The notes below the pieces were generated by a model. That model saw only the letters and a program-made list of their open reading frames with translations, was not told the DNA's origin and did no database searches. This document shows, piece after piece, positions 1 to 2,767 of a DNA stretch of 64,000 bases (position 1 is the stretch's first letter; each line of letters begins with the position of its first letter). The stretch comes from Ignavibacteriota bacterium (GTDB lineage Bacteria > Bacteroidota > Ignavibacteria > Ignavibacteriales > Melioribacteraceae). The DNA is taken from contig PAAX01000014.1 of assembly GCA_002698995.1 (NCBI GenBank), forward strand, positions 1-64,000. The letters are read 5' to 3'. Both the position numbers and the translations under genes were made by a program.

Positions 1-98
1 AAAGATTACACTCAGCTATTGGGTATTTATCTCCGGTTGATTATGAAAATTTATCTTAATTACCTTATTTTTTTGTCTACTTTTTGGGGTAAAGATCA
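1..98 (+). mobile_element. 3' end of an IS3-family insertion sequence (transposase OrfB tail plus right terminal repeat)
   Basis: Reading the plus strand from base 3 gives RLHSAIGYLSPVDYENLS followed by a TAA at 57-59. The pattern RLHSA(L/I)GY(L/K)SP.(D/E)YE is the classic C-terminus of IS3-family OrfB transposases (rve integrase core). About 15 bases after the stop lies TGTCTACTTTTTGGGG, continuing to TAAAGATCA at 90-98. Its reverse complement begins TGATCTTTACCCC, like an IS3-family terminal inverted repeat, so the right end of the element is placed near 98. The rest of the element lies outside the window, so intactness and the left end cannot be judged. Identification of the peptide is solid; the exact boundary is inferred. 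Confidence 0.75.
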
Positions 99-313
99 GA
101 ATTCAAAAGAAATATTTTGATTAGGCTGCTGTCTAGATAAATCTGAAAAACAGGCGGACAGGTTAGGAATTAAGGAGTGAATTAAAAGCTATTAGAATAT
201 TTGAATAATATTATTTACTCAAGTCCAGTCTGTAAAATTTTACTGCTGATATTTTGATAGGAAAATTGTGGTTTATGATTTCTGAATGTTTGATATATTT
301 AAAAACAATAAAT

Positions 314-346
314 AGACATGCCATTTCTTTGAGAAATAGCATGTCT
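314..346 (-). terminator. Intrinsic terminator-like hairpin after the multiheme cytochrome gene
   Basis: AGACATGC (314-321) pairs with GCATGTCT (339-346), and inside it ATTTCT pairs with AGAAAT around a TTG loop. It lies about 20 bases past the stop codon of the minus-strand cytochrome gene and is followed on that strand by an AT-rich stretch containing TTTTT. The rest of 99-364 shows no coding potential that I can support. Confidence 0.7.
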
Positions 347-364
347 TGATTAATTTTCTAAATA

Positions 365-2767
365 TTATTCTTTCTCTTCAGAGTTTTGTTTTTCAACCCA
401 TTCTCTTAATTCAAGATCATTTTCCAATTCACTTTGTACAAATTCTTTCAGATCAACCTTATTATCAGTTAATCGTTTCTTGAATAATTGAGCAAAGTTC
501 TTCAATTCTGATTCTTGAATTTTGCCTTCTGTAAATTGCTTTAACTGCATAAAAACTTCTTTGTAATGAACTTTATGGTGTTCTTTATATTTAGCTAGAG
601 TTACTCCTCCGCTAATCCATGCAAAGCTCATTGGATATTCACTTGGTCTAAATATTACAAAGAACCAGTGCCAAACAATAATTGCTAAAGTAGCAAGAAT
701 TGCTTCATAGAAGTGAATTATTTCACTTACTTTAATTAACCAAACAGGAGCCCAATCACCAACCATAGTTGGGAACCATAGAATAAATCCGGTTACACCC
801 ATTACAATTGTACCCCAAATTAAAGCCCAGTATTCTGCTTTTTCGGTATAATCATATTTGTGGAAAGTAGGATGTTTCTTTGATAATCTTAAGTAGTACA
901 TTAAATTATCTATCACATCTCTTAAATCCTGGAAGTTTGGTAGAAGATTTTTAAGTACATCTCTGCCTCTTGAGGTAAACAGTAAATACCAAACATGATA
1001 GAAACCGACTGCAAGCATAACTATTGCTGAGATTCTATGAATCCATTGACGGGCAAATTCCGTCATTCCCATTGCAAGCAGCATTTCAGCCCACCAGCTG
1101 TCGTGGAATTTTAATGCAAATCCAGTTACAGCAAGAGTTAAGAAAGAACTTAGTAACAGAACATGCTGAATCACTTCACCTTCGGTAAATCTTGGAACAG
1201 TAATTTCTTTTTGCACTTTTCTATAAGATTTTCTTATTTCATAAACATAGATTAATAAGTTATGAACTATCATTCCGCCAATAACCACAACAACCAGCCA
1301 GAAATATAAATTTGTTACTAAATCTTCAACAAATTTTGCTTCTTCATTTTGACTAACATGTGAATAACTTTGTGAAAATACTTCAGTTGCTTCAGGGTGA
1401 CAAGTTTGACAAGTTGCAGTTACATTTTCCGGACTTACCATAGATTCCGGGAATGATTTTGGTAATATTTTGTGAACACCGTGGCAGTCAACACACAAAG
1501 CTGCTTCATCAGAACCGCGCATTGCAGCTAATCCATGATAACTATCTTGATATTGAAGAGCTTGTCCCCCCTGCTTACCAAATTTTTCAGCCATTCTAGG
1601 GTCTTGATGACAAACCATACAAGTCTGTTCTTGAATTAACTTTACATTTTTCTTGTCTTTTAATGCATTTACAGAATGAATATTATGTTCATTATGGCAG
1701 TCATTACAAACAGGTGCTTCTCTAATTCCTTTTACTGCATAAAGCCAGTGAATTGACTGTGTATATTCTTCTGTTTCTTTAGGGTGGCATTGACCGCATG
1801 TTTCCGGTAAATGGAAACTTGATATAGTTGATCCGGGCTGAACTCTGTTTTTAATGTTGTGAGTTCCGTGACAGTCTAAGCAAGATGGAGCATCTTTTGA
1901 ACCTTCTTCAATCAATTTTCCGTGTACAGAATTGGAGTATAATGCACCAGGTGATTGAATAGTCATATTATGTTTTTTCTGGAATGCCGGATCATCGTGG
2001 CAATAACCACAAGTGTTAACCAAATTTGCCGATGAAACAGGACTTGCCGGATCAGAAACTTTTACAATCTCATGACTTCCGTGACAATCCCAGCATTTTG
2101 CTGCATCTTCCATTCCGTTAAGAATTGAAATTCCGTGAATACTTTCTTTATGTTCTTTTGCGATATCAGAGTGACAAACATAGCAATCGGCTGCTTTTGC
2201 AGGATCAAGATTTCCGGGATGATCTTCAATTTCAGCAGAAATACTTCCGTGGCAGTCAACACAATTTAAAGTTGAGTGAACAGAAGCTTTAACAAGAGGA
2301 GTATAGTCTTTATCACTATGGCAATCTTGGCATTGATTATCACTAACCGGTGGTCTGTGATATGAACTTGTTAAAACCATATTTTGATGACAACTATTGC
2401 ACATAGTTTTAGCTGGATTTCTCATTGTTGAAGGGGAAATCACTTCATGAGTACCATGACAGGTTTTACAAGTTGGAGCATTTTCAACTTTTAATCTATG
2501 ATGAATATCTGTGGCAACCATCTCTTCATATTCTGAATGGCAGTCAGCACAATTTACCGCTTTAGCACCATCTTCCATGTGTGCTTCATCTTCAACATCA
2601 CTATGGCAGTCTTGGCATGCAATCACTTCGTTATGAACAGATTTTTCGGTAAAATTATCATGGCAATCCATACATGAAAAATCTTGAGCATTAATATTTG
2701 CTGCAAACAAAATTAAGGTCAGCCAAATAAGTCCGGTAAATCGTTTTACTGTTAAAGGAAACTTCAT
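365..2767 (-). CDS. 16-heme cytochrome c fused to a membrane di-heme-type cytochrome b (CbcL-like quinol oxidoreductase)
   Basis: 800 aa. A signal peptide (about residues 1-28, cleavage after NINAQ) is followed by 16 CXXCH heme-c motifs whose first Cys lie at about 32, 51, 73, 100, 123, 146, 169, 195, 225, 253, 296, 324, 354, 383, 425 and 453. Residues 488-707 form about five membrane helices with His at about 502, 535, 577, 591, 685 and 700. The HFYEAILATLAIIVWHWFF segment resembles the HydC/FdnI type of cytochrome b that binds two b hemes. A charged cytoplasmic tail follows. Geobacter CbcL has the same plan (periplasmic multiheme c domain plus HydC/FdnI-like b domain) but with nine c hemes. 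The inferred role is passing electrons from menaquinol to a periplasmic heme wire. A GGAGAGG ribosome site precedes the ATG. No oxidoreductase partner gene is adjacent. Confidence 0.85.
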   Translation of the reverse strand: MKFPLTVKRFTGLIWLTLILFAANINAQDFSCMDCHDNFTEKSVHNEVIACQDCHSDVEDEAHMEDGAKAVNCADCHSEYEEMVATDIHHRLKVENAPTCKTCHGTHEVISPSTMRNPAKTMCNSCHQNMVLTSSYHRPPVSDNQCQDCHSDKDYTPLVKASVHSTLNCVDCHGSISAEIEDHPGNLDPAKAADCYVCHSDIAKEHKESIHGISILNGMEDAAKCWDCHGSHEIVKVSDPASPVSSANLVNTCGYCHDDPAFQKKHNMTIQSPGALYSNSVHGKLIEEGSKDAPSCLDCHGTHNIKNRVQPGSTISSFHLPETCGQCHPKETEEYTQSIHWLYAVKGIREAPVCNDCHNEHNIHSVNALKDKKNVKLIQEQTCMVCHQDPRMAEKFGKQGGQALQYQDSYHGLAAMRGSDEAALCVDCHGVHKILPKSFPESMVSPENVTATCQTCHPEATEVFSQSYSHVSQNEEAKFVEDLVTNLYFWLVVVVIGGMIVHNLLIYVYEIRKSYRKVQKEITVPRFTEGEVIQHVLLLSSFLTLAVTGFALKFHDSWWAEMLLAMGMTEFARQWIHRISAIVMLAVGFYHVWYLLFTSRGRDVLKNLLPNFQDLRDVIDNLMYYLRLSKKHPTFHKYDYTEKAEYWALIWGTIVMGVTGFILWFPTMVGDWAPVWLIKVSEIIHFYEAILATLAIIVWHWFFVIFRPSEYPMSFAWISGGVTLAKYKEHHKVHYKEVFMQLKQFTEGKIQESELKNFAQLFKKRLTDNKVDLKEFVQSELENDLELREWVEKQNSEEKE

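What the first reader, a model, noticed from the sequence alone, without database searches (positions are those of the whole stretch)
365..2767. 16 c-type hemes fused to a cytochrome b in one polypeptide
Sixteen CXXCH motifs are followed by a five-helix HydC/FdnI-like segment. The architecture is that of Geobacter CbcL (nine c hemes), known to pass menaquinol electrons toward extracellular acceptors, but with many more hemes. The gene is solitary, with no porin-cytochrome conduit next to it, so it may be a complete quinol-to-periplasm wire or the input to an unseen outer-membrane conduit.
Basis: partly seen in the sequence, partly recalled or inferred. Interest (0 to 1): 0.7.

Follow-up and report, generated by a model that had tools for sequence, protein, structure and literature searches.

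The report
Sixteen-heme CbcL-like quinol oxidase
The gene encodes an inner-membrane protein that probably takes electrons from the quinone pool and passes them along sixteen hemes into the periplasm, toward an outer-membrane conduit that is encoded elsewhere in this Melioribacter-like genome and, in most relatives, right next to it; it is an enlarged member of a known kind of protein rather than a new system.

Summary
The minus-strand gene 365-2767 encodes 800 aa with a signal-peptide-like N-terminus, exactly 16 CXXCH motifs, 16 invariant candidate distal histidines, then five membrane helices. The last four match FdnI of formate dehydrogenase N by sequence and fold, and FdnI's four heme-b histidines all align with histidines invariant in 67 relatives.

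The interpretation needs correcting. Here the gene stands alone (own ribosome site, terminator-like hairpin after the stop, contig end at a repeat), but that is not typical. In 39 of the 61 same-family genomes that have it, a beta-barrel gene lies within 2.3 kb; where read in full the order is 16-heme gene, tetraheme, beta-barrel, 14-heme, multiheme lipoprotein-like protein. This genome keeps that conduit once, on contig C2, and the usual upstream block on C19.

The 16-heme form is one clade (Melioribacteraceae and a few other lineages) nested among 11-heme relatives from many phyla; the extra five hemes fit a duplication of the first five. Published CbcL/MtoC/MtrH homologs already range from 3 to 23 motifs.

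Best explanation: a CbcL-like menaquinol oxidase feeding a porin-cytochrome conduit. Function rests on family, ligands and gene neighbourhood; direction, acceptor and heme spacing are untested.

The parts
365..2767 (-). Complete CDS, 800 aa, 16-heme c / b fusion
   Evidence: single copy in the genome
2774..2780 (-). Ribosome-binding site GGAGAGG
   Evidence: read from sequence
2687..2767 (-). Signal-peptide-like segment, residues about 1-27 (hydrophobic helix then ANINA/QD)
   Evidence: hydropathy; inferred, no signal-peptide predictor was run
2345..2686 (-). Hemes 1-5 (residues about 28-141), the block absent from 11-heme relatives; aligns in register with hemes 6-10
1346..2344 (-). Hemes 6-16 (residues about 142-474), the 11-heme core shared across many phyla; hemes 9-16 are four doubled-CXXCH modules (by inspection)
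1238..1345 (-). Extra membrane helix (residues 475-510) with invariant H502
650..1183 (-). FdnI-like four-helix di-heme b core (residues 529-706); ligands H535, H577, H685, H700 align with FdnI H18, H57, H155, H169
314..346 (-). Terminator-like hairpin (15 pairs, loop 3, T-rich tail) 18 bases after the stop codon; one found, 1.7 expected in shuffles
1..130 (+). Repeat also found at the first bases of contigs C33 and C9; bases 3-59 read like the 3' end of an IS transposase (recognised by eye)

Best explanation
An inner-membrane CbcL-like menaquinol:cytochrome oxidoreductase. Two b hemes in an FdnI-like four-helix core (H535/H700 toward the cytoplasm, H577/H685 toward the periplasm, by analogy with FdnI) take electrons from menaquinol and pass them to a periplasmic arm of 16 bis-His c hemes. 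The arm hands them, directly or through periplasmic carriers such as the tetraheme protein, to an outer-membrane conduit of beta-barrel, 14-heme protein and multiheme lipoprotein encoded at G000 C2:22.3-26.3 kb. Shown: motif number, ligand conservation, b-domain fold and homology, conserved gene neighbourhood, presence of the conduit genes in this genome. Inferred: quinone specificity, direction (quinol oxidation rather than electron uptake), partner contacts, extracellular acceptor.
For: 16 CXXCH and 16 invariant candidate distal His in 22 orthologs, so no obvious open catalytic heme. FdnI match: HMMER 1.5e-11, Foldseek probability 1.00, TM 0.78 by target, all four FdnI heme ligands aligned with invariant His. 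Gene order 16h-4h-barrel-14h-lipoprotein in relatives; barrel within 2.3 kb in 39 of 61 genomes and elsewhere in 19 more. Co-occurrence 58/61 against 6/18, Fisher p 1.3e-7, not corrected for kinship. Own-genome conduit genes are 54-64% identical to relatives'. The 420-aa protein is predicted as an outer-membrane beta-barrel. Ignavibacteria with porin-cytochrome clusters were enriched on anodes (PMC7399161).
Against: No Geobacter CbcL sequence could be fetched, so kinship to CbcL itself rests on architecture and FdnI homology. Five helices, not the six usual in CbcL. In this genome the gene is unlinked to the conduit, and in the nine-row subtree that holds it (support 94/89) none of the rows shown is linked to it, so partnership is inferred from relatives. 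This genome also has other possible quinol oxidases (ImcH-like on C2, NrfD/FeS/13-heme on C19) that could feed the same conduit.
Confidence: 0.75

Rival explanations
1. Electron uptake: the same chain run inward (MtoC-like quinone reductase), accepting electrons from extracellular Fe(II) or a cathode.
For: MtoC is a member of the same family, and the published comparison found no sequence feature that separates quinol oxidation from quinone reduction (PMC6295460).
Against: The organism's relatives are anaerobic heterotrophs of Ignavibacteria, with Fe(III)- and nitrate-reducing species among them (PMC7399161). Nothing found here points to Fe(II) oxidation, but it was not searched for systematically.
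Confidence: 0.12
2. Quinol oxidase for a soluble periplasmic reductase (nitrite, tetrathionate or similar) rather than for extracellular transfer.
For: Many multiheme b/c quinol oxidases feed periplasmic enzymes; the genome has an octaheme tetrathionate reductase family protein with its own cytochrome b (L060); the gene is unlinked to the conduit here.
Against: The conserved neighbours in relatives are a beta-barrel with multihemes, not a periplasmic reductase. The octaheme protein has its own neighbouring cytochrome b.
Confidence: 0.1
3. A complete one-chain wire from quinol to the outer membrane that bypasses soluble periplasmic carriers.
For: 16 hemes in one chain, more than the 9 of CbcL; the arm grew by five hemes in this clade.
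Against: A tetraheme gene is the immediate neighbour in the operons. Two family members in the tree have an 11-heme version, one of them in the conduit operon (L094), so the extra five hemes are dispensable. Reach of the arm unknown (pTM 0.62).
Confidence: 0.12

Closest known systems
CbcL of Geobacter sulfurreducens and the CbcL/MtoC/MtrH homologs (PMC6295460, PMC9129911)
   Same: N-terminal multiheme c domain with all bis-His ligation, C-terminal HydC/FdnI-like di-heme b domain; often encoded beside other c cytochromes; published homologs include Ignavibacteriae (2) and Bacteroidetes (5) and 3-23 CX2CH motifs.
   Different: 16 rather than 9 c hemes; five rather than six membrane helices; linked in relatives to a beta-barrel/14-heme conduit that was not compared directly with known OmbB or MtrB types.
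FdnI, cytochrome b556 subunit of E. coli formate dehydrogenase N (PDB 1kqf chain C)
   Same: Four-helix core, four b-heme histidines, fold (TM 0.78 by target).
   Different: One extra N-terminal helix and a covalent 16-heme arm in place of the FdnG/FdnH partners.
11-heme + b relatives in Calditrichota, Acidobacteriota, Zixibacteria, Latescibacterota, Gemmatimonadota and others (loci L135-L182)
   Same: Hemes 6-16 and the b domain align end to end, 36-41% identity.
   Different: Lack hemes 1-5; often next to an ImcH-like gene or a 19-heme b fusion.

Membership tests
CbcL/MtoC/MtrH | N-terminal c domain with 3-23 CX2CH motifs | tested here: met
   16 motifs; published range from PMC6295460
CbcL/MtoC/MtrH | C-terminal HydC/FdnI-like b domain with conserved His ligands | tested here: met
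CbcL/MtoC/MtrH | Six membrane helices (usual, not universal: four published homologs have five, one has four) | tested here: not met
   five helices in model and hydropathy; exceptions in PMC6295460, so not treated as excluding
CbcL/MtoC/MtrH | Sequence kinship to G. sulfurreducens CbcL | not testable with these tools
   no Geobacter CbcL sequence was reachable; the one genome-contig scan returned only the closest 80 loci
CbcL/MtoC/MtrH | Needed for low-potential extracellular acceptors | not testable with these tools
   needs a mutant
FdnI-type cytochrome b (Pfam Ni_hydr_CYTB) | Pfam profile over cut-off and four b-heme His | tested here: met
   55.5 bits against cut-off 30.1; ligands aligned
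NrfA/octaheme nitrite or sulfite reductases | A catalytic heme with an open or Lys-type ligation (CXXCK or unusual motif) | tested here: not met
   no CXXCK or CX15CH motif; 16 invariant distal His for 16 hemes

The most novel reading that the evidence does not exclude
The five-heme extension turns the quinol oxidase into a periplasm-spanning wire that docks straight onto the 14-heme conduit protein, giving quinone-to-surface transfer with no diffusing carrier in this clade.
Probability: 0.12. Interest if true: 0.6.

Novelty: new member of a known kind. Interest (0 to 1): 0.35.

Why it matters
It supplies a concrete inner-membrane entry point and a conserved operon for extracellular electron transfer in Melioribacteraceae, a group found on anodes but poorly understood, and it shows how the heme arm of a CbcL-like enzyme grew, probably by a five-heme duplication. 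It also shows that a 'solitary' cytochrome at a contig end can be a displaced member of a conserved operon.

Tried and rejected
Solved structures by sequence with the single protein: only weak hits to MccA and a cytochrome c; the profile then reached FdnI. Plasmid tblastn: no match. Measuring heme-heme distances: the structure tool exports no coordinates and places no hemes. Direct kinship to Geobacter CbcL: no sequence reachable. A chance or frameshifted ORF was rejected: all 16 motifs and many further residues are invariant in 22 homologs. The contig edge hiding a downstream operon was rejected as far as the sequence goes: terminator-like hairpin and no ORF to the edge, and the conduit is found on another contig. 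In the b-domain tree FdnI and the own-genome 220-aa cytochrome b are very long branches, so their placement is not used.

Full report
Observation. The ORF 365-2767 (minus strand) encodes 800 aa. It has a hydrophobic N-terminal segment like a signal peptide, 16 CXXCH motifs and no CXXCK or long-spacer motifs. In the rest of the window only one other frame over 60 aa holds a CXXCH, and it holds one, so the array is not a chance feature. The protein is single copy in its genome of 4.23 Mb, 36 contigs.

Membrane domain. Hydropathy and an AlphaFold2 model built on 67 relatives (mean pLDDT 84.6, pTM 0.62) both give five long helices: 475-510, 529-553, 570-597, 640-664, 675-706. Pfam Ni_hydr_CYTB matches at 55.5 bits against a cut-off of 30.1. 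A profile of the relatives hits FdnI, PDB 1kqf chain C, at 1.5e-11, and a fold search with the model finds the same chain as the only hit below 0.001, TM 0.78 by target. Reading that alignment, FdnI His18, His57, His155 and His169, its known b-heme ligands (established knowledge), each face a histidine, while its four other histidines do not. The corresponding window residues H535, H577, H685 and H700 are conserved in 67 of 67 relatives. The extra first helix carries an invariant H502 whose role is unknown. Topology is inferred: periplasmic c domain, helix 1 inward, then the four-helix core with the same orientation as FdnI.

c-heme arm. In an alignment of 22 sequences of 16-heme form (this one and 21 others, 47-57% identical to it), all 16 CXXCH and 16 further histidines are invariant (H45, 63, 89, 107, 137, 164, 206, 211, 232, 282, 303, 340, 361, 411, 432, 470), and H183 is kept in 21 of 22. 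This is what all-bis-His ligation predicts and leaves no obvious catalytic heme, so a terminal reductase is unlikely. Hemes 1-5 are missing from the widespread 11-heme relatives in Calditrichota, Acidobacteriota, Zixibacteria, Gemmatimonadota and other phyla. Block 1-5 aligns collinearly with block 6-10 (HHalign probability 99.3, 31% identity) and scores higher in that register than in six other registers (mean 138.8 against 91-124); other heme blocks also resemble each other, so a duplication is likely but not proven. In a tree of the b domains the 16-heme proteins form one fully supported group with two 11-heme members inside, which fits one gain and two losses.

Neighbourhood. In this genome the gene is alone: upstream is a gap of about 330 bases and an ArsC-like gene, and 18 bases after the stop is a terminator-like hairpin (such hairpins are expected 1.7 times by chance in the stretch, so its position is the argument). 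The contig begins 364 bases away in a repeat that also starts contigs C33 and C9. In relatives the order is Fe-S protein, NrfD, 13-heme, histidine kinase, two response regulators, (often a 19-heme plus cytochrome b pair), the 16-heme gene, tetraheme, 420-aa barrel, 14-heme, 5-10-heme lipoprotein-like protein. Named relatives include Melioribacter sp. and Melioribacteraceae genomes with the same order. Of 61 family genomes with the gene, 39 have the barrel gene within 2.3 kb, 19 elsewhere and 3 nowhere; of 18 without the gene 6 have the barrel (Fisher p 1.3e-7, kinship not corrected). In this genome the tetraheme, barrel, 14-heme and 6-heme genes sit together on C2 at about 22.3-26.3 kb, best matches 54-64% identical to relatives', and the FeS-NrfD-13-heme-kinase-regulator block is on C19 at 68-75 kb. 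Pfam confirms the NrfD, Fe-S, kinase and regulator assignments. The barrel gene has no Pfam match, but the prediction for a relative's copy is a beta-barrel of more than twenty strands and the top 50 fold matches listed are nearly all outer-membrane barrels, with no preference for a particular electron-conduit porin.

Mechanism. The most likely role is a CbcL-like menaquinol oxidase that sends electrons through 16 c hemes toward this conduit. If the quinol site lies on the cytoplasmic side as in FdnI, the reaction itself would not conserve energy; that is inference. CbcL in Geobacter is needed for acceptors below about -0.1 V and its nine hemes are all bis-His (PMC9129911). Direction could be reversed in principle, since published comparison found no diagnostic for oxidation versus reduction (PMC6295460).

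Novelty. A 2018 survey already reports CbcL/MtoC/MtrH homologs with 3-23 heme motifs in many phyla including Ignavibacteriae and Bacteroidetes, mostly with six but sometimes five helices, and Ignavibacteria with porin-cytochrome clusters are known from anodes (PMC7399161). I found no paper in the searched library describing the 16-heme clade or its fixed operon, but that library is incomplete. Hence a new member of a known kind, of moderate interest.

Noticed in passing
G000 C20, L053:5081-9390: A second possible electron-transfer cluster: 5-heme, 14-heme and 37-heme (949 aa) frames followed by a 535-aa barrel-like protein.
   Followed up: partly
G000 C7, L055:4469-7177: A 902-aa protein with nine CXXCH motifs and a type IX secretion sorting tail, so perhaps a cell-surface cytochrome; relatives G031 and G046 have a 9-heme gene of similar length beside the 16-heme gene.
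   Followed up: partly
L061:3145-5004 and 1156-2310: The histidine kinase of the conserved block carries one CXXCH motif (in the relative L064 it lies before the HAMP domain; possible heme redox sensor), and the partner response regulator is fused to a glycine-cleavage H-protein domain.
   Followed up: partly
L092 (G008, one-contig genome): The orthologous gene is split by an in-frame TAA inside the membrane domain into 644 and 150 aa frames; real split or sequencing error not resolved.
   Followed up: no
loci L103-L172, '19h'/'cytb' genes: A second CbcL-like protein with 19-23 hemes, as a c/b gene pair in Melioribacteraceae and as one fused chain in other phyla, often next to the gene studied but not detected in this genome.
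   Followed up: partly
G000 C24, L057:5183-5752: A five-heme membrane-anchored protein resembling QrcA of menaquinone reductase, below the curated cut-off.
   Followed up: no
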